Shown here: piece after piece, positions 2,954-30,437 of the stretch
Numbering within the stretch: the stretch's first letter is position 1
Layout of the letters: the number at the start of each line of letters is the position of its first letter
DNA from: Desulfovibrionaceae bacterium
Lineage (GTDB): Bacteria; Desulfobacterota; Desulfovibrionia; Desulfovibrionales; Desulfovibrionaceae
Length of the DNA stretch: 64,000 nucleotides
Assembly: GCA_009782775.1 (NCBI GenBank)
Contig: WRIL01000003.1
Span: 56,062-120,061 of the forward strand
Direction of reading: 5' to 3'
The notes under the pieces: generated by a model
The model's input: the letters and a program-made list of their open reading frames with translations, nothing else
Database searches by the model: none
What the model was told of the DNA's origin: nothing
Translations under genes and position numbers: made by a program

Positions 2954-4927
2954 ATGTGCGGCATAACCGGATTCTGGAATCTGCGGACGGATGAGAGCGT
3001 TGAGGTCATGCGCGGCCGCATCACGCCCATGACCAACAGCATGTTCGCACGCGGGCCGGACAGCGGCGGTCTGTGGCTGTCGCCGCAAAACGGCCTGGCG
3101 CTCGGACATCGGCGACTGGCCATACAAGACCTTTCGCCGGCCGGGCCTCAGCCCATGACCACGGCGGACGGCCGTTATGTCCTCTGCTGCAACGGCGAAA
3201 TTTACCACCACGAGCCGCTCCGAACGGAACTGGAGGCCGCCGGGGCATGCTTCCGAGGGCATACAGACACGGAAACCCTGTTATACGGTTGCGCCCTGCT
3301 GGGCGTGGAGCAAGCCATATCCCGGCTTAACGGCGTATTCGCCTTCGCCTTCTGGGATAACCGGGGAAAAATACTGACCCTGGCCCGCGACAGAATGGGG
3401 GTAAAACCTCTCTATTGGGGCAAATTCGGCGACCTCTTCCTGTTCGGGTCGGAACTCAAACCCCTGACGCTCCACAGCGGCTGGGAAAAGCGCGTCAACC
3501 TAGATGCCGTGGCCGGCCTGATGGATGTCTGCTACATACCGGCCCCGCTCTCCATTTACGAGGGCATCCAAAAACTGCGGCCCGGGCATCTGCTGGAAGT
3601 GACGGGTGATGGAAACATACGCGAGCGTTGCTGGTGGAACCCCCTGAATACCCTGCTCTCATGCCGGCAAAACCGGCTGCGCGGCGATGACAGAGAGTTG
3701 ATTGACGGCCTGGATGAACTGCTGCGCGATGCCGTTAAAACCCGCATGGCTTCGAACGTGCCTCCGGGCGCCTTTCTCTCGGGCGGGGTTGATTCCTCCG
3801 CGGTGGCAGCGCTCATGCAGGTTCAGTCCGGCAGGCCCATCAGGACCTTTTCCATCGGTTTCGATGAAAAGGACTACAATGAAGCGCCTTTTGCCAGGGC
3901 CGTAGCCGAACATCTGGGCACGGATCATACTGAAGAATACATGACGGCAGGAGAGGCTCTGGAGATTATCCCGCAACTGGCCTCTTTTTATGACGAACCC
4001 TTTGCCGACTCTTCCCAGCTGCCGACTTTTCTGCTTTCGCGCCTTGCCAAAAAGCATGTATCCGTGGCCCTTTCCGGAGACGGGGGGGACGAATTTTTTT
4101 GCGGCTATGCCCGATATGCCCATTGCGTCCACGCTTACGAGCACGGCAGCCGCCCGCGCTGGCAGCAGGCGATCATTCTTGGCCTGGCAGCCGCTTTTTC
4201 TGAAAACACCCTCAACCGTCTAGCCTACCTGTTGCCGGCCTCCGCGCGTCCGCCGCATTTTGGCAGGCGCGTCAAAAACTTCGCCGCCAAATTCGCGGAT
4301 CCGATCAGCTTCTACCGGGCAAGCTATATGCGCCATTGGCCGGACGCGGCCTCCATGGTCATAGGCGCAACATTGCCTGAACCAGAGTACGCCGACGCGT
4401 CCCTGACCAAACGCATTCCCGATATGTACGGCCTCATGCAGTTTTTGGACATAGTGAGCTACCTGCCCGATGACTGCCTGGTCAAGGTGGATCGTGCCGG
4501 CATGGCTGTATCGCTGGAAACCAGAGCGCCGCTTCTGGATAGTCGGGTCTATGATTTTGTATGGAGCCTGCCGGAGGGGGCATTGACCCGCGGCGGGCAA
4601 AGCAAATGGCCGTTACGTGAGGTTCTGTACCGCTATGTGCCCAAAGAACTGATTGAAAGACCCAAAATGGGGTTTGGCGTGCCTATTGAACACTGGCTGC
4701 GCGGCCCCCTGCGGGAGTGGTGTTCCGATCTGCTGGATCCGGCGCGGCTGAAGAAAGATGGATTTCTGCGTCCCGAAACTATTCAGCCCGTGTGGCAAAA
4801 GCATCTGGCCGGAAAAAATTACCACTACTGGCTGTGGAATGTGCTGATGTTCCAGGCTTGGCTGGAAGAGCGGAGCAAGATGCCGGCTATTCGTGAGGCG
4901 CCCCTTGCGGAGGTGGCAGTTGCATAA
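2954..4927 (+). CDS. asnB: Asparagine synthase (glutamine-hydrolysing) type amidotransferase
   Basis: 657 residues, the size of a full AsnB. The protein begins MCGITGFW, so Cys2 is exposed as the glutaminase nucleophile after Met removal. The class II glutaminase domain covers about 1-230, and the synthetase domain follows with the PP-loop FLSGGVDSSAV near 273 and LSGDGGDEFFCGY further on. AsnB-type enzymes make asparagine from aspartate, glutamine and ATP; members in polysaccharide loci may instead amidate uronic acids, and this position between glycosyltransferases and the exporter favours that as an inference. The end overlaps the permease gene start, so the two are translationally coupled. 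Confidence 0.9.
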   Translation: MCGITGFWNLRTDESVEVMRGRITPMTNSMFARGPDSGGLWLSPQNGLALGHRRLAIQDLSPAGPQPMTTADGRYVLCCNGEIYHHEPLRTELEAAGACFRGHTDTETLLYGCALLGVEQAISRLNGVFAFAFWDNRGKILTLARDRMGVKPLYWGKFGDLFLFGSELKPLTLHSGWEKRVNLDAVAGLMDVCYIPAPLSIYEGIQKLRPGHLLEVTGDGNIRERCWWNPLNTLLSCRQNRLRGDDRELIDGLDELLRDAVKTRMASNVPPGAFLSGGVDSSAVAALMQVQSGRPIRTFSIGFDEKDYNEAPFARAVAEHLGTDHTEEYMTAGEALEIIPQLASFYDEPFADSSQLPTFLLSRLAKKHVSVALSGDGGDEFFCGYARYAHCVHAYEHGSRPRWQQAIILGLAAAFSENTLNRLAYLLPASARPPHFGRRVKNFAAKFADPISFYRASYMRHWPDAASMVIGATLPEPEYADASLTKRIPDMYGLMQFLDIVSYLPDDCLVKVDRAGMAVSLETRAPLLDSRVYDFVWSLPEGALTRGGQSKWPLREVLYRYVPKELIERPKMGFGVPIEHWLRGPLREWCSDLLDPARLKKDGFLRPETIQPVWQKHLAGKNYHYWLWNVLMFQAWLEERSKMPAIREAPLAEVAVA

Positions 4928-23837: not shown

Positions 23838-23886
23838 GGCCGCCTGAACTATGGCATTTGCTTGTTCTAGAAACCTGGATGCGCGC

Positions 23887-25122
23887 ATGGAACCAGTAAC
23901 ACAATCAATTTTGGCCGTTTCCTGGTCCATGCCCCCGGCGGTTCTGCCCCAATCCATACAGATATCCCGCCTTCTGGGGGCCATGAGCGGACAGGGCTGC
24001 GAAATACATGTTCTCACTTCCCTGATTGACAAGAAGCAATACCCAACCTTCATCTCTGATGACGCCCTGGCCGCGCGGTACGCGGACAAGTTCAGAACCT
24101 CCATAGTGATCCCGGATTATGGAGCAAAAATCAGGCGGAAACTGCGACGATCAAAAGCGCCACTGTGGGAAGAGGCTGTCTGTAAACACGCGGCCAGCCT
24201 GCTGAAAAAAACGCCGCATACCGCGCTGATCACCTTTGCGCAGCCATTTTCCGATCATCTTATCGGGCTGCGGCTCAAACGCGATTTCCCGAGGTTGCCG
24301 TGGATCGCCCATTTCAGCGACCCTTGGGCGGACAATCCTTACGCAACACCCACAGCGGACGACCATAAGCATGAGCGCGAAACAATCGAGCTGGCGGATG
24401 CCCTTGTCTTTACCACCGAACGGACGAAAAAGCTTGTCATGCGGAAATACCCGGAGGCATGGGCCACCAGAGCCCATGTTCTGGCGCACTGCCTGGAACC
24501 GGATGACATTGCGCCCCCCCACGCGCTCCATGCAATTGAGGGCGATGAGCCTGATCTGCATATTCTGCACACCGGCAATCTTTATGACGCCCGCGCGCCC
24601 TATGGCCTGCTGTTCGCTCTGCTACGCCTCAAAAAAAAGGGAATGGGAGGCATCAAAGTGAGTTTTGTGGGTCATGCGCAGCCGGCCTTCCTGGCGATGC
24701 TCAAAGCTTGCGCGCTTGAAGACAGCATTTTTTGCCAGGCAAGCCTGCCGCCTGTGGAATGCAACGTTCTTTGCGCCAAGGCGGACGTTTTGCTGGTCTG
24801 CGACGCTCCGGCCCCTGAAAGCGTTTTTCTGCCCAGCAAACTGGTGGATTACCTGGCGGCAGGCCGTCCCATCCTTGCCCTTACGCCACAACAAAGCAGC
24901 ACCACGGATTTTTTGCGGGATGTCGGCGGCTTCAGCGCCCCTCCGGAAGATGTCGAAGCCATCGCCACTACGCTTGAAAATTTGCTGCGCATGAAACGGC
25001 AAGGAACGCTGGAAACGCTCTGCCCTACCCCGGTCGCGCAACACATGTATCTTGCGGAAACAGCCGCGGATCGTCTGCTCGGCATCATTGCTTCACTAAA
25101 TAACGGTGGCATGTGTACATGA
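23887..25122 (+). CDS. Glycosyltransferase (GT4-like)
   Basis: About 411 residues. The N-terminal half has SMPPAVLPQSIQISRLLGAM and later WIAHFSDPWADNPY, a pattern of GT-B enzymes of the WcaI/FNL type. The C-terminal half has ILHTGNLYDARAPYGLL and FLPSKLVDYLAAGRPILAL, which correspond to the donor-site glycine-rich turn and the EX7E region, here with Lys-Leu instead of a clear second Glu. ATG 23887 is favoured; 23851 is the alternative. The stop overlaps the next gene (ATGA). Confidence 0.82.
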   Translation: MEPVTQSILAVSWSMPPAVLPQSIQISRLLGAMSGQGCEIHVLTSLIDKKQYPTFISDDALAARYADKFRTSIVIPDYGAKIRRKLRRSKAPLWEEAVCKHAASLLKKTPHTALITFAQPFSDHLIGLRLKRDFPRLPWIAHFSDPWADNPYATPTADDHKHERETIELADALVFTTERTKKLVMRKYPEAWATRAHVLAHCLEPDDIAPPHALHAIEGDEPDLHILHTGNLYDARAPYGLLFALLRLKKKGMGGIKVSFVGHAQPAFLAMLKACALEDSIFCQASLPPVECNVLCAKADVLLVCDAPAPESVFLPSKLVDYLAAGRPILALTPQQSSTTDFLRDVGGFSAPPEDVEAIATTLENLLRMKRQGTLETLCPTPVAQHMYLAETAADRLLGIIASLNNGGMCT

Positions 25123-26141
25123 AAAAAACGAAATTTCCGGAAAACACGCCGGATGAACGGTACCCGGCGGAGCGCATGGCCCATTGGAACGGTATCGCGC
25201 GAAACAGGGACTCATTGCCGGGCCTTGGCGGATGCTACCACCGGCAATTACGCGAACAGTACCGCTTTTTGATTCCCGAAGGCTCACGGGTGCTGGAGAT
25301 CGGCTGCGCGGAGGGCGATCTGCTGGCCGCTTTGCGGCCGGCCTATGGCGTTGGCCTTGATCTTTCTCCCGAAATGCTGGTCATGGCCAGAAAGCGCCAC
25401 CCCCACCTGCTCTTCGTCCAGGCCGACATTTGCGCCCCGGAACTGGATGCCGCCTTGGATATCAGGGAAAGCGAAAGCTTTGAACAGCCTTTTGACGCCA
25501 TCATCCTCTCCGACCTAGTGAATGATATTTGGGATGCGCTGGCCATGTTCAAAAACCTGCGCCGTTTCTGCGATCAGAATACCCGGATTGTGCTCAATTT
25601 TCACAGCCACCTCTGGGAGCATCCTTTTCAAATGTTGCAGCGCTCCGGCAGGGTAACCAGCCGCCTGAAGCAGAACTGGTTTACCCCGGAAGATACGGAA
25701 AATTTACTCGGGTTGGCCGGGTTTGAGGTCATCCGCACCTTTGAGGCCGTGCTCTGGCCTTTTGCCACCCCGCTTCTGGAACGCCTGTGCAACCGCTGGC
25801 TGGTCAAGCTCTGGCCTTTCTCCATATTCGCCATGACCCATTTTCAGGTCTGCCGACCGGCTTCTCCCCCCCCCAAAAAAAGACCGGTCTGGTGTCTGTG
25901 GTTATTCCCGCGCGCAACGAAGCTGGCAACATTGAGAACGCCCTGCTCCGCACCCCGGAAATGGGCGCGGGCACGGAGATCATTTTTGTGGAAGGCAATT
26001 CCACGGACAACACCTGGGAATCCATCACCGAAGCCATTGCCCGGCACCCCGAACGCCGTTGCAAAGCGCTGCGCCAACCCGGCAAGGGCAAGGGCGATGC
26101 CGTGCGGGCAGGGTTTGCCGTTGCCGAAGGCGACATCCTGA
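25119..26141 (+). CDS. SAM-dependent methyltransferase, frame-interrupted N-terminal half of a methyltransferase-GT2 protein
   Basis: Residues 1 to about 250 are a class I methyltransferase: VLEIGCAEGDLLAALRPAYG is motif I, GLDLSPEMLVMARKR motif II and FDAIILSDLVNDIWD motif IV. The domain ends with FSIFAMTHFQVCRP, and at 25866-25881 the DNA reads C9A7. Past this tract the frame continues to 26141 but encodes an Arg/Pro-rich string with no family look, whereas the -1 frame at once gives a GT2 domain. The intended product is therefore probably a fused methyltransferase-glycosyltransferase. ATG 25119 overlaps the preceding stop. See the tract entry and findings. Confidence 0.8.
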   Translation: MKKTKFPENTPDERYPAERMAHWNGIARNRDSLPGLGGCYHRQLREQYRFLIPEGSRVLEIGCAEGDLLAALRPAYGVGLDLSPEMLVMARKRHPHLLFVQADICAPELDAALDIRESESFEQPFDAIILSDLVNDIWDALAMFKNLRRFCDQNTRIVLNFHSHLWEHPFQMLQRSGRVTSRLKQNWFTPEDTENLLGLAGFEVIRTFEAVLWPFATPLLERLCNRWLVKLWPFSIFAMTHFQVCRPASPPPKKRPVWCLWLFPRATKLATLRTPCSAPRKWARARRSFLWKAIPRTTPGNPSPKPLPGTPNAVAKRCANPARARAMPCGQGLPLPKATS

Positions 26142-26605
26142 TGATTCTGGATGCGGATCTGACCATGCCGCCGGAAACTCTGCCGCAATTTTTTGAGGCC
26201 ATTGCCTCGAATCACGGCGAGTTCATCAACGGCGTGCGCCTTGTCTACCCGCAGGAAAAAGAAGCCATGCGCTTCTTCAACCTGGTGGGCAACAAGTTTT
26301 TCAGCCTGGCCTTTTCCTGGCTGCTCGGCCGCCCGATCAAGGATACCCTGTGCGGCACCAAGGTACTCAGCCGGGCGAATTATTTGAAAATCGCCGCCAA
26401 CCGCGCCTATTTCGGCGATTTTGACCCTTTCGGCGATTTTGACCTGCTCTTTGGCGCCGCCAGACAGAATCTGAAGATTGTGGACCTGCCCGTGCGCTAC
26501 CGCGAGCGGACATACGGGGAAACCAACATCTCCCGCTGGCGGGACGGCTTCATCCTGCTGCGCATGGTGCTGTTCGCCCTGAACCGCATCAAGTTCAAAC
26601 CCTAG
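25787..26605 (+). CDS. Glycosyltransferase family 2 domain (C-terminal half of interrupted fusion)
   Basis: The GT2 domain proper begins around 25889 with LVSVVIPARNEAGNIENAL, followed by IIFVEGNSTDNTWESI, QPGKGKGDAVRAGFA, MILDADLTMPPETL and, near the end, LPVRYRERTYGETNISRWRDG. This is the DPM1-like/polyprenyl-phosphate glucosyl branch, without C-terminal membrane helices. The frame is open from a GTG at 25787, but residues before 25889 merely re-read methyltransferase codons, and no ribosome site is visible. In-frame GTG codons at 25892 or 25898 would clip the first strand. The cleanest reading is that it is made as the C-terminal half of a fusion by -1 shift at C9A7. Confidence 0.82.
   Translation: MQPLAGQALAFLHIRHDPFSGLPTGFSPPQKKTGLVSVVIPARNEAGNIENALLRTPEMGAGTEIIFVEGNSTDNTWESITEAIARHPERRCKALRQPGKGKGDAVRAGFAVAEGDILMILDADLTMPPETLPQFFEAIASNHGEFINGVRLVYPQEKEAMRFFNLVGNKFFSLAFSWLLGRPIKDTLCGTKVLSRANYLKIAANRAYFGDFDPFGDFDLLFGAARQNLKIVDLPVRYRERTYGETNISRWRDGFILLRMVLFALNRIKFKP
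25866..25881 (+). other. C9A7 homopolymer tract at a frame junction
   Basis: Nine C (25866-25874) run into seven A (25875-25881). In the upstream frame the codons are CCC CCC CCC AAA AAA AGA; stepping back one base gives AAA AAG ACC and enters the GT2 frame. Both long C runs (replication slippage, phase variation) and AAAAAAAG (a -1 ribosomal or transcriptional slip site) are known frame-switching sequences, and both are error-prone in sequencing. Confidence 0.9.
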
Positions 26606-26619
26606 GGAACTGCGCGGAA

Positions 26620-28653
26620 ATGAGCCGAATGGAGAAATTTTGTCGCAGCCTGGTCGCTCAAGCGGAACAGCGTATGCAACGCATCGGGGATGCGCTTCCC
26701 CAGCGAACGTGGACGCTGTTCGAATGGGGCATACTGCTCGGCCCCATAGTGTTCTGCGCGGCGGCCGCGCTGTACCTGGCCGCCTGCGGCTGGGCGCTCT
26801 ATAACGGGTATGCCTCTTTTGCGGGCTGGCCTTTGCGCCAAATCGAAACGCTGTTTCCCGTCTATGGGCTGGATGCCCGCTTGGCCGCCCGGCTCAGGGA
26901 CTGGGCCGTTGTGGCATGGGCGGCGCTGGCCTTGTGCTTGATCATGCGACGTCCGGCAGCGGAACAAATCTTGCGCCGCCTGGATTGGATCTATCGCTGG
27001 CCGGGACTCCCAGCCGTCATGGCCCTGTTTCTCTTTCACCTCGGCTACGCCTGGGCTGCGCCGGAACAAATCAGCGCCCACGGCTCCGTTCTCGGCGGGC
27101 ATGTACCTTTTAACGATGCTAACGGACATTATCAATATCCATTCTGGTTTACTCTGGATGGAACCTTCAATCATTGGATAATGCGCCGGCCCTTGAACTG
27201 CGTAATGCGCTTGGGGCTTGATCTGCTGGCTGGCTGGAATCCCCCGCGCATTATCGCCCTGCAGACTGCCCTGCTGGGCTTGTCCGCCTGGCTCTTGGGA
27301 CTGGCTGCGCTGCGGCGCTGGGGCTTTTGCTCCGCTGTCGTTGCCTGCGCCCTTGTCTTTCTGCTGTCCAAAACCTTCCTGCCGACCTTTCTGGCGGCGA
27401 CTCCGGGGCAGATATGGGCCTGTCTCTCCCTCATTCTCTGCCTGGACGCGCTGTATGTCAAAAGCCGCGCATCGGCTTTTTGCGCCCTGGCGGCCTTGAC
27501 CATAACCCTCCTGGTACGCATGGGAACCATGTTTCTCCTGCCCGCGATCTTGTGCTGGATCCTCGTCCGCTTCTGGAACGGCTGGCGCAGGGCCGCCCTG
27601 CATGCCTGCCTGGGCCTGGCGCTTATGGCTGCCTGCTTCGGCGCTTCGCAGGCAGTAAGCACAATGTATTCCAAGGCAGGGACGCAAGGCGCGAATTTTG
27701 CCTATACCTTGGCCGCGTTGAGCTTTGGCGGAAAGGATTGGAGCGATGCGCGAACAAAATATAAAGAACGCCTTGTGGGTAAAACCGAAAAAGAGCAGGC
27801 GCGTTTTCTCTACGCGCAAGCCTGGGAAAATATCCGGCACGATCCGAAAACAATTGCCGCCGCTCTGGCGGACCGCGCCGGAGCCTTTTGCCGGGATGCG
27901 CCGCGTTTTATGCAACAAGCCCATGCCGCTGATAAAAAAGGCTCATTCTTCTGGCTGCTGACGGCCCTTGCCTTCTGGCGTTTGTGGCGGAGCGAGCCGC
28001 AGCAGCGGATCTTCTGGCTGTCGGCTATGGCCGGGATAACGGCTTCCGCCGCTGTGGTGCATTTTGACGACGGCGATAGAATCTTGTTGCCGGGCTATCT
28101 TTTTCTGGGCCTGTTTCTGGCAGGTGGTCTCCAACTTGCCCCTTGCGCCGCACCCCGGCGGGTTTATCAACCGGCCATGATTTTGGGCGGGCTGCTGATC
28201 CTTCTTATGTTCAGCGCGCCGGCTCTGGCCTGGCGCTTTCCGCCGGAAGCCGCGCGCTTTCTGCGGGGCTATCATGCCCCGCCCCTGGCGCAGGATGAAG
28301 TCCTCGTCTGGGGCGGCGGCAGCATGGCCGGCATCCTTGTAGTGCCCGACGATGCGCCGATCCCCGCGGATGTTCCGGCCGTGCCGCTTTCATCCTTTGT
28401 CGCGAATATAAAAAAATCCAGGGTGGAACAGTACCAGCCGCTGGTCACGCCTCTTCCTCCAGAGCCGCCCTTTGCCTTCATTTCAAGCATTGCGTCTCAT
28501 GGTTTTCATGGTTGCCTCATCGCTCCTCCGGACATGCTACGCCGCGGCGATGTCCCTGTCTGGAGGGTACGCTATGCAGACTTGCATCCCCCGGGCCAAT
28601 ACTGGAAACGCGTTGTTACGGCGGAGCCGATCAGCACGGGGAAGACGCCGTGA
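26620..28653 (+). CDS. Large polytopic membrane protein, possible GT-C type glycosyltransferase
   Basis: 677 residues with about ten or more hydrophobic helices through residue 550 and a short soluble C-terminal region. The first large loop contains GHVPFNDANGHYQYPFWF, an acidic stretch like those that hold the catalytic Asp in GT-C enzymes; this is suggestive only. Its position just after a polyprenyl-sugar type GT2 supports a role in adding a lipid-linked sugar on the periplasmic side. I cannot assign it to a named family. The next gene starts within its stop (GTGA). Confidence 0.72.
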   Translation: MSRMEKFCRSLVAQAEQRMQRIGDALPQRTWTLFEWGILLGPIVFCAAAALYLAACGWALYNGYASFAGWPLRQIETLFPVYGLDARLAARLRDWAVVAWAALALCLIMRRPAAEQILRRLDWIYRWPGLPAVMALFLFHLGYAWAAPEQISAHGSVLGGHVPFNDANGHYQYPFWFTLDGTFNHWIMRRPLNCVMRLGLDLLAGWNPPRIIALQTALLGLSAWLLGLAALRRWGFCSAVVACALVFLLSKTFLPTFLAATPGQIWACLSLILCLDALYVKSRASAFCALAALTITLLVRMGTMFLLPAILCWILVRFWNGWRRAALHACLGLALMAACFGASQAVSTMYSKAGTQGANFAYTLAALSFGGKDWSDARTKYKERLVGKTEKEQARFLYAQAWENIRHDPKTIAAALADRAGAFCRDAPRFMQQAHAADKKGSFFWLLTALAFWRLWRSEPQQRIFWLSAMAGITASAAVVHFDDGDRILLPGYLFLGLFLAGGLQLAPCAAPRRVYQPAMILGGLLILLMFSAPALAWRFPPEAARFLRGYHAPPLAQDEVLVWGGGSMAGILVVPDDAPIPADVPAVPLSSFVANIKKSRVEQYQPLVTPLPPEPPFAFISSIASHGFHGCLIAPPDMLRRGDVPVWRVRYADLHPPGQYWKRVVTAEPISTGKTP

Positions 28654-30437
28654 ACAAGCCCCCCCCTTGGGCGCGGTGGGGAAAAACCATTTGTGTGGCC
28701 CTGGGCCTGGGCCTTGCCGGGTACTTCCTCGCTTCCCTGGATTTGGCGCTCTGCGCGGGGCTGTTGCGGCAACTCTCCCCGCTTCCTCTGGGCGGGGTTT
28801 TGCTCTGCATCATAGCCTCGGCATTCTTCAGGAGCTTGCGCTGGCGTCTGCTGGCCGGGAGCGCTATGGGCAAAAAACTGCCGGTGAACGCCTTTTTCCG
28901 CGCGGTCAGCGTGGGGTATCTGGGGAATATGATTCTGCCGGCCAAGGCCGGAGAGGCCCTGCGCATGGCCTATGCCTGCAAACAGATTGGCTTGCCGGCG
29001 GGCCTGGCCGTCAGCACGGGTCTCGTGGATCGCCTGCTGGACGTCATCGGGCTGCTCCTGCCCATCGGCTGCATCCTGTTTTTGCTTGAGGAAAATCCCC
29101 TGTTGCGCGGGTTGCGTTGGTTTTTTCCAGCCGTCATGGTCCTGGGGATTGCTTTTTTGGCAGCCCTGGGCCTGGTTCCAGAGCGCATGCGAAGCCTGAT
29201 CGGCCTGCCCGCGCGCTTTATGCCCAGGCTCGTCCGGGAACGGATGCACGACGCCGTGGACAAAGCGCTTCAGGTATCCGCCGCTTTTCAAAGCCCACGG
29301 GCAGTCGTGGGGCTTTGTCTCTGCACCATGGCGGCTATAATGGCGGATTGCGGCACCTGTTGGATGCTCATGCAGGCCTTTGGCTGGGATTTGCCCGCGT
29401 CCTCGGCCATCATGATGGAATTCGGCTTGGCCGTGGCCGGAAGCGTGCCTTCCGCACCCGGATACCTGGGCGCTTACCAGGCGGCCGCCGTCCTGACGCT
29501 TTCCCTATACAGAATAGAACAAAGCGCTGCCGTTCTCTATGCCTTTGCCCTGCAATTCATCCTGCTGGGCGCGTTTCTACTGCTGGGGGGCAGCGCGGTT
29601 TTGTCTTTGCGGCGTGAACGAACCCAAGATAACGAGAAAAAATCATCCTTACTGCGACAGCTTTTGGCCCATCCGCTGACCAGGGATCTGGCTGTGGATG
29701 ACCCGCGCACAAGCGCCCGGCGCAGGATGATCATTCAGGAAAAGGCATTTTTGCGCCGGCTCTACGCGGAATGGTACGACAGGATCATGGCCGCGTTGCC
29801 GATTGATGCCGCTGTGTCCGGCAAAATTTTGGAAATAGGTTCAGGCGGCGGATTTTTTAAGGACAGGTTCCCCGAGTGCATTTCTTCCGAAGTGTTTGCC
29901 CTGCCCGGCATTGACCTTGTTTGTGACGGGCAGCGCCTGCCTTTCGCCTCCGCCTCCCTGCGCGCCATTGTCATGGTGGACACGTTGCACCATATTCCGG
30001 ACTGCGGTCTTTTCTTCGCGGAAGCGCAACGCGTCCTCAAAGAACAAGGGCGCATCGTCATGCTCGAGCCGTGGAACAGCGCCTGGGGACGATGGATTTA
30101 TCAGCATCTGCATCATGAGCCCTTTGTGCCGGAAGCCGCGGATTGGACATTGACGGACATTGCCGGAAGCGGCCCTTTGAGCAGGGCCAACGGCGCCATC
30201 CCCTGGATCGTCTTTTCCAGGGAACGGGAACATTTTGAAAATTGTTTTCCGGAATTGCGCATTCTGGCAATCCAGCCGGATTACCCGTTCAGTTATCTCG
30301 CTTCCGGCGGCGTTTCCATGCGGGCGCTCGCGCCGGGCTGGAGCTTTTGCCTCTGGCGCGGCCTGGAACGGGCGCTAAGCCCTTTTATGCCCGCCTTGGG
30401 CATGTTCGCCCTGATCATCCTTGAGCGAAAGAAGTGA
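28650..30437 (+). CDS. Fusion of LPG-synthase-type membrane domain (UPF0104) with a SAM methyltransferase
   Basis: 595 residues from GTG 28650, which overlaps the previous TGA. Residues 1 to about 325 have the flippase-like membrane domain of lysylphosphatidylglycerol synthetase (SAFFRSLRWRLLAG, GYLGNMILPAKAGEALRMAY, GLVDRLLDVIGL, SVPSAPGYLGAYQAA). After a charged linker with an RERTQDNEKKSSLLRQ stretch comes a class I methyltransferase domain: ILEIGSGGGFFKDRFPE as motif I and AIVMVDTLHHIPDCGLFFAEA as motif IV. Together they suggest a protein that moves or binds a lipid and methylates a lipid or lipid-linked sugar. It is the last gene of the polysaccharide locus. Confidence 0.85.
   Translation: MNKPPPWARWGKTICVALGLGLAGYFLASLDLALCAGLLRQLSPLPLGGVLLCIIASAFFRSLRWRLLAGSAMGKKLPVNAFFRAVSVGYLGNMILPAKAGEALRMAYACKQIGLPAGLAVSTGLVDRLLDVIGLLLPIGCILFLLEENPLLRGLRWFFPAVMVLGIAFLAALGLVPERMRSLIGLPARFMPRLVRERMHDAVDKALQVSAAFQSPRAVVGLCLCTMAAIMADCGTCWMLMQAFGWDLPASSAIMMEFGLAVAGSVPSAPGYLGAYQAAAVLTLSLYRIEQSAAVLYAFALQFILLGAFLLLGGSAVLSLRRERTQDNEKKSSLLRQLLAHPLTRDLAVDDPRTSARRRMIIQEKAFLRRLYAEWYDRIMAALPIDAAVSGKILEIGSGGGFFKDRFPECISSEVFALPGIDLVCDGQRLPFASASLRAIVMVDTLHHIPDCGLFFAEAQRVLKEQGRIVMLEPWNSAWGRWIYQHLHHEPFVPEAADWTLTDIAGSGPLSRANGAIPWIVFSREREHFENCFPELRILAIQPDYPFSYLASGGVSMRALAPGWSFCLWRGLERALSPFMPALGMFALIILERKK

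What the first reader, a model, noticed from the sequence alone, without database searches (positions are those of the whole stretch)
25866..25881. C9A7 tract at the frame junction of a methyltransferase-GT2 fusion
Seen: a complete methyltransferase domain runs in one frame to C9A7; exactly there the -1 frame starts a full GT2 domain with no own ribosome site, while the original frame continues into sequence without family character. Known: long C runs cause phase variation and A7G causes -1 slippage. Inference: the cell may switch or split expression of a bifunctional enzyme and so vary its surface polymer; a sequencing error is the dull alternative.
Basis: partly seen in the sequence, partly recalled or inferred. 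Interest (0 to 1): 0.75.

Follow-up and report, generated by a model that had tools for sequence, protein, structure and literature searches.

The report
Sugar-enzyme gene split at C9A7
A bacterial gene that in 94 relatives checked at the DNA level is one reading frame for a two-part enzyme (a methyltransferase joined to a sugar transferase) is out of frame here at a run of nine C and seven A in the linker between the parts, most likely an 'off' version made by copying slippage in the C run and possibly reversible, although an assembly error has not been excluded.

Summary
A methyltransferase (MT) frame runs to C9A7 (25866-25881), where the -1 frame carries a complete GT2 domain. In 94 of 94 relatives checked at the DNA level the two are one frame: 13 of 13 other family genomes with a strong match (288 searched), one genome of the same order, and the 80 best of 571 named-genome loci (ranked by a fused query, so biased). 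The tract lies in a coil linker of variable sequence. Both halves look undecayed: 48 of 48 MT and 119 of 119 GT2 invariant positions are kept.

Programmed -1 slippage is not supported: the heptamer A_AAA_AAG lies in the GT2 phase, not the MT phase, A7 is short for transcriptional slippage, and no shift site is conserved. One database protein (P0057) also leaves frame in the linker, at another sequence.

The likeliest account is slipped-strand change of tract length, an OFF state of a phase-variation-like gene. Assembly error is the main rival. Against it, 11 of the genome's other 14 C/G runs of 9-12 sit in open frames, and the identical split protein is listed on a different contig. No allele of another tract length was found. 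If real, it is a new member of a known kind.

The parts
25119..25865 (+). methyltransferase half (class I SAM-dependent) of the split gene
   Evidence: Pfam Methyltransf_23 etc.; 79% identical to the first half of fused protein P0002; keeps 48 of 48 invariant columns
25866..25874 (+). C9 run in the linker codons
   Evidence: sequence
25875..25881 (+). A7 run directly after the C9 run
   Evidence: sequence; codon phases
25882..26141 (+). out-of-frame tail of the MT ORF (85 aa from 25884, then stop)
   Evidence: no Pfam match; overlaps the GT2 coding sequence in another frame
25883..26605 (+). GT2 half in the -1 frame
   Evidence: Glycos_transf_2; 94% identical to fused P0002; keeps 119 of 119 invariant columns
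25892..25900 (+). two in-frame GTG codons at the very start of the GT2 domain, without a ribosome site
   Evidence: database protein P0121 begins at the start of this domain
25787..25789 (+). GTG of the GT2 frame upstream of the tract, inside the MT gene; weak GGAA in front; possible but unproven start
25852..25893 (+). inverted repeat with the C9A7 tract in its loop; significance unknown
   Evidence: fold -14.1 kcal/mol, z -3.0, 2 of 200 shuffles as good; in the longer 81-nt stretch z is only -0.5
23851..25122 (+). upstream glycosyltransferase-like gene overlapping the MT start
   Evidence: weak Glyco_trans_1_4, below the curated cut-off
26620..28653 (+). 677-aa ORF of unknown family just downstream
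   Evidence: no Pfam or NCBIfam match
28650..30437 (+). LPG_synthase_TM (flippase-like) plus methyltransferase ORF; C8 run at 28659-28666 lies 9 nt after its likely GTG start
   Evidence: Pfam; TIGR00374 flippase-like; sequence

Best explanation
A gene that is one reading frame for a methyltransferase joined to a GT2 glycosyltransferase in 94 relatives checked at the DNA level is out of frame here at C9A7 in its linker, most likely through slipped-strand replication in the C run, giving an OFF variant of a phase-variation-like gene that would be reversible. Shown: the split, the tract at the exact junction, one-frame homologues, and two undecayed halves. Inferred: in the OFF state the cell likely makes the methyltransferase half with an 85-residue nonsense tail and little or no GT2, which has no good ribosome site. 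The fused enzyme probably makes a polyprenyl-phosphate sugar (its GT2 half resembles DPM synthase, ArnC and GtrB) for a surface glycan made by neighbouring genes, so a switch would change that glycan in a fraction of cells. Untested: that tract length actually varies.
For: Frames and tract. One uninterrupted MT-GT2 frame in 13 of 13 other family genomes with a match at E <= 1e-40 (14 of 288 matched, own included), in G048 of the same order, and in the 80 named loci kept, the best of 571. The linker varies in sequence and length; its longest homopolymer is 6 or less in 92 of 94 relatives and 8 in two, against C9 plus A7 here. Invariant columns kept: 48 of 48 and 119 of 119. 11 of the other 14 C/G runs of 9 or more sit in open frames, including C11 in a Kdo transferase and G12 in a family-1 glycosyltransferase. 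An identical 340-aa split protein is listed with a contig of 9,145 bases, not the window's 120,061. The same kind of switch in a commensal is described for Bifidobacterium breve pilus genes, two ORFs separated by a G-tract (PMC9187656, passages).
Against: No copy of this species with another tract length was found: the next protein hit is another lineage at 79% identity (best 120 of 1796 hits listed). C9 is short for a contingency tract (12-14 C in the H. pylori futA/futB tables, PMC2583950, passages). C runs of 9 are not enriched over a Markov model, and 38 of 39 genomes searched, own included, have at least one. The genome is a draft (36 contigs, 84.6% complete) with no reads at hand. One other tract (L097, G10) also looks frame-broken and one ORF (L096) ends soon after its tract, which an error-prone assembly would also give. 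The open-frame control is imperfect: the Pfam domain itself spans the tract in only 2 of the 9 proteins scanned (L092, L095).
Confidence: 0.5

Rival explanations
1. Assembly or sequencing error in the length of C9A7: the gene in the cell is one intact frame like its relatives.
For: 94 of 94 DNA-checked relatives are intact and both halves are undecayed, exactly what an error in a healthy gene would look like. The genome is a draft with no reads to check. Singleton frame breaks confirmed by BLASTp and Pfam were judged likely sequencing errors in a survey of 1106 genomes (PMC3711429, passages). Database lengths of G-tracts can differ from the cell's (PMC9187656, passages).
Against: 11 of 14 other runs of 9 or more, up to 12, lie in open frames. 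The identical split protein is listed with a different contig, though perhaps from the same reads.
Confidence: 0.3
2. Recent fixed loss: a one-off indel in the tract has inactivated the fusion and the gene is a young pseudogene.
For: The gene is patchy in the family (14 of 288 genomes at E <= 1e-40) and in the genus only the window's genome of 7 has it, so it is likely dispensable.
Against: No stop or further frame break in the GT2 half and no loss of any invariant residue. The lesion lies in a slippage-prone run, where reversal is expected.
Confidence: 0.13
3. Programmed -1 frameshifting or transcriptional slippage on C9A7 makes some fusion protein from the split gene.
For: A7 followed by AGA, a fairly rare codon (2.5 per thousand in eight nearby genes), could allow low-level P-site slippage. 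One other database protein, P0057, also leaves frame in the linker.
Against: MT-phase codons are CCC AAA AAA AGA; A_AAA_AAG is in the GT2 phase. [quoted passage not shown] coli than A_AAA_AAA (PMC5009743, passages). Selection against transcriptional slippage is usually evident from runs of nine A or T, with eight productive in some IS elements (PMC1088944, passages). The stretch downstream folds worse than shuffles (z +1.3). 94 of 94 DNA-checked relatives need no shift, and the broken database proteins leave frame at different places.
Confidence: 0.04
4. Stable fission: MT and GT2 are now two separate working proteins, GT2 starting at GTG 25892 or 25898, or at GTG 25787 inside the MT gene.
For: GTG codons sit at the very start of the GT2 domain, and a gene caller started P0121 there. 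GTG 25787 has a weak GGAA in front.
Against: No ribosome site at 25892 or 25898. The MT frame runs on through the GT2 start to 26141, so coupled restart is not set up. None of the 94 DNA-checked relatives has the two parts as separate genes, though more distant stand-alone GT2 proteins at about 30% identity exist.
Confidence: 0.03

Closest known systems
Bifunctional class I SAM-dependent methyltransferase / glycosyltransferase family 2 proteins (NCBI name on P0175 and P0200)
   Same: same two domains in the same order; the window keeps the residues invariant in 18 fused proteins
   Different: one uninterrupted frame in the relatives; split at C9A7 here
Bifidobacterium breve sortase-dependent pilus genes bbr_0113 and bbr_1889 (PMC9187656, passages read)
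   Same: two ORFs of one surface-related gene separated by a C/G homopolymer, second ORF without active initiation, in a commensal
   Different: pilin genes with a G-tract of about G11-G12 at bbr_0113, length variation measured and enriched in vivo; nothing measured here
Helicobacter pylori futA/futB fucosyltransferase poly-C phase variation (PMC2583950, passages read)
   Same: poly-C in a glycosyltransferase gene sets the reading frame
   Different: 12-14 C near the 5' end, many isolates compared; here C9 sits in a linker between two domains and only one genome is known
E. coli dnaX-type -1 frameshifting at A_AAA_AAG (PMC5009743, passages read)
   Same: an A-rich run at a frame junction
   Different: the heptamer is in the wrong phase here and the site is not conserved
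Polyprenyl-phosphate sugar synthases (DPM synthase 5mlz, ArnC, GtrB)
   Same: the family's GT2 half matches by profile (5mlz, 8.7e-22) and by predicted fold (ArnC 5.5e-14)
   Different: no methyltransferase part in the matched regions of those proteins; substrate unknown here

Membership tests
Bifunctional MT-GT2 enzyme | methyltransferase and GT2 domains in this order | tested here: met
Bifunctional MT-GT2 enzyme | family-invariant residues kept | tested here: met
   48 of 48 and 119 of 119
Bifunctional MT-GT2 enzyme | both domains in one reading frame | tested here: not met
   split at C9A7; one frame in the 94 relatives
Phase-variable (contingency) gene by homopolymer slippage | homopolymer in the coding region whose length sets the frame | tested here: met
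Phase-variable (contingency) gene by homopolymer slippage | tract length varies between cells or strains | tested here: inconclusive
   no second allele of this species among the listed protein hits; no reads available
Phase-variable (contingency) gene by homopolymer slippage | gene acts on a surface structure | tested here: inconclusive
   domain content and glycan neighbours make it likely; not shown
Programmed -1 frameshift gene | slippery heptamer in the phase of the upstream frame | tested here: not met
Programmed -1 frameshift gene | shift site conserved in homologues | tested here: not met
   94 of 94 DNA-checked relatives read through in one frame; broken database proteins differ in site, one (P0057) in the linker at another sequence
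Transcriptional slippage gene | run of about nine A or T | tested here: not met
   A7; length from PMC1088944 (passages)
Polyprenyl-phosphate sugar synthase | sequence and fold similarity to DPM synthase, ArnC, GtrB | tested here: met
   profile and model of the fused relatives
Polyprenyl-phosphate sugar synthase | transfers a sugar to a polyprenyl phosphate | not testable with these tools
   needs an assay

The most novel reading that the evidence does not exclude
A C-tract in the linker of a two-domain enzyme acts as a switch between a full MT-GT2 enzyme and a free methyltransferase, so slippage changes which of two activities the cell keeps rather than turning one gene off. It belongs to a wider set of C/G tracts of 8-12 in this lineage's envelope-glycan genes (flippase-like gene C8, ABC export pair G10 and C10, Kdo transferase C11, family-1 glycosyltransferase G12) that together vary the surface.
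Probability: 0.17. Interest if true: 0.6.

Novelty: new member of a known kind. Interest (0 to 1): 0.33.

Why it matters
If the tract varies in the population, it adds a likely case of glycan phase variation in a lineage known here only from a draft genome. The twist is that the slippage site is the linker of a fusion enzyme, so one state would keep the methyltransferase alone. If it is an assembly error, it is a useful warning that homopolymers in linkers of fused genes can create false 'two-gene' annotations.

Tried and rejected
Programmed frameshifting: rejected on codon phase, A-run length and lack of conservation. Apparent conservation of the out-of-frame tail in P0070, P0079, P0086 and P0092 (coverage 89-97%) was checked: they continue past the linker into GT2 and leave its frame at different places, and such proteins rank high because the query carried the tail. 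BLAST alone does not place P0079's break (it aligns to residue 337 of P0002); that one was placed by eye. Against a clean rule: of the 120 listed hits (1796 in all) 8 lack the GT2 Pfam domain: the window's own P0001; these four; P0073, named partial by its source; P0104, which ends at the linker on a 969-base contig; and P0057 (295 aa, contig 48,560), which leaves the frame in the linker itself, at a different sequence. Its DNA was not seen.

Enrichment of long C runs: rejected as an argument. The codon count held one stretch in the wrong frame; it was redone (AGA 9 of 3609 codons). The hairpin around the tract: strong in 46 nt (z -3.0) but not in 81 nt (z -0.5) and not tested in relatives, so left unexplained. 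A homologue check of the other frame-broken tract gene (L097) matched only its own genome (1 of 58), so that case stays unverified.

Searches for a described MT/GT2 bifunctional enzyme gave 0 papers and 1 off-topic paper (listing only). Searches were used as listings to choose papers. No paper was read whole; five were read as passages (PMC3711429, PMC5009743, PMC1088944, PMC2583950, PMC9187656).

Full report
What is there. The window's + strand carries a methyltransferase ORF (25113 or 25119 to 26141) whose codons reach C9 (25866-25874) and A7 (25875-25881) as CCC CCC CCC AAA AAA AGA. In the frame one base back the same bases read TCC CCC CCC CAA AAA AAG, and that frame stays open to 26605. 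Pfam gives methyltransferase families in the first part and Glycos_transf_2 (3.7e-22) in the second, and nothing in the 85 residues that the first frame adds after the tract. GTG codons at 25892 and 25898 open the GT2 domain without a Shine-Dalgarno-like sequence. One more GTG of that frame lies before the tract, at 25787 inside the MT gene, with a weak GGAA in front. C9A7 occurs once in the 1.74 Mb draft genome.

What the relatives say. Searching 59 genomes with each half found the pair in one open frame in G048 (483 aa) and G033 (506 aa); more distant stand-alone GT2 proteins at about 30% identity are common. With the fused database protein P0002 as query, 14 of 288 family genomes matched at E <= 1e-40, own included. 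In all 13 others one stop-free frame spans both domains (12 loci plus G033, also checked there). marks one TAG inside the matched stretch in G259 and G269, but one search shows a single frame across the linker there too. Among database proteins the nearest is P0002 (79% identical over the MT half, fused), followed by more fused proteins, and the GT2 search is likewise dominated by fused proteins. Of the 120 listed hits, 8 lack the GT2 Pfam domain: the window's own protein, P0073 (named partial by its source), P0104 (ends at the linker on a 969-base contig), four that leave frame inside GT2, and P0057, which leaves frame in the linker at a different sequence. The fused gene is the rule; among DNA-checked copies the window's is the only exception.

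Why the tract matters. In 94 relatives (80 named loci, 12 family loci, L003, L004) the linker varies in sequence and length, and its longest homopolymer is 6 or less in 92 and 8 in two. In the predicted model of P0002 (18 sequences, mean pLDDT 74.5, pTM 0.57) the linker is a coil between a strand at 256-261 and a strand at 270-277. So the tract likely sits where length is tolerated and mainly the frame matters. Both halves are undecayed: the window keeps 48 of 48 and 119 of 119 columns that are invariant in 18 fused proteins. The frame break is therefore recent, reversible, or not real.

Real or error? The genome has 15 C or G runs of 9 or more (25 overlapping nine-mers). Of the other 14, 11 run through an open frame: an M24 peptidase, a Kdo transferase (C11), a pseudouridine synthase, a GGDEF protein, a 651-aa ORF ending just after its tract, a spermine-synthase-like protein, a family-1 glycosyltransferase (G12), a VgrG3-like protein, a 998-aa ORF, and an ABC permease (G10, Pfam below cut-off) with its ATPase (C10 directly after GTG). 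Nine of these were scanned with Pfam; the domain itself spans the tract in two (M24, GGDEF), and elsewhere the tract lies outside the best-scoring domain stretch, so the control is good but not perfect. One tract is outside a gene, one ORF ends 19 codons after its tract (L096), and one gene-like stretch seems to change frame at G10 (L097; only its own genome matched). The assembly thus mostly carries such runs in frame, which favours a real difference, but two or three exceptions in 15 keep error alive. An identical 340-aa protein is listed with a contig of 9,145 bases rather than 120,061, so a second assembly seems to show the same frame, perhaps from the same reads. No allele of this species with another tract length turned up.

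Mechanism. Slipped-strand replication in the C run is the likeliest cause (inferred; described for poly-C and poly-G genes in PMC2583950 and PMC9187656, passages read). In the state seen here the cell likely makes the methyltransferase with a nonsense tail and little GT2. Ribosomal -1 slippage is unlikely: the MT phase offers C_AAA_AAA and A_AAA_AGA, while A_AAA_AAG is in the GT2 phase, and A_AAA_AAG is the strongly shift-prone site in E. coli (PMC5009743, passages). Selection against transcriptional slippage is usually evident from nine A or T (PMC1088944, passages), longer than A7. No shift site is conserved in the homologues looked at.

Function. The family's GT2 half matches DPM synthase, ArnC and GtrB by profile and predicted fold, so a polyprenyl-phosphate sugar synthase is likely. 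Neighbours include a weakly matching glycosyltransferase, a polysaccharide deacetylase, more methyltransferases, a 677-aa protein of no family and a flippase-like protein. That this is a surface-glycan locus is inference from domains.

Verdict. If real, it is a phase-variation-like OFF state at the linker of a fusion enzyme, a new member of a known kind; an assembly error remains the chief rival.

Noticed in passing
28659-28666: C8 run 9 nt after the likely GTG start (28650) of the flippase-like/methyltransferase gene in the same cluster; 3 of the window's 5 C/G runs of 7 or more lie in the cluster at about 19.7-30.4 kb.
   Followed up: partly
L103:2513-2522 and 3138-3147: G10 inside an ABC-2-like permease and C10 directly after the GTG start of the adjoining ABC ATPase, both in open frames; candidates for on/off switching of polysaccharide export.
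   Followed up: partly
L097:2535-2544: A gene-like stretch on the minus strand seems to change frame at a G10 run; only its own genome matched among 58.
   Followed up: partly
L096:2541-2550: A permease-like ORF (by eye) on the minus strand ends 19 codons after a G10 run, with a different gene starting close behind; looks truncated.
   Followed up: no
L100:2530-2541 and L093:2526-2536: G12 in a family-1 glycosyltransferase and C11 in a Kdo transferase, both in open frames.
   Followed up: no
28650-30437: A flippase-like LPG_synthase_TM domain and a methyltransferase domain share one ORF; in G048 and G033 a similar methyltransferase follows the MT-GT2 gene as a separate gene (likeness judged by eye).
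   Followed up: no
25852-25893: Inverted repeat enclosing the C9A7 tract (z -3.0 in 46 nt, -0.5 in 81 nt); not tested in relatives.
   Followed up: partly
P0057: A database protein on a 48,560-base contig has the same kind of methyltransferase half and leaves the reading frame in the linker, at a different sequence; its DNA was not seen.
   Followed up: partly
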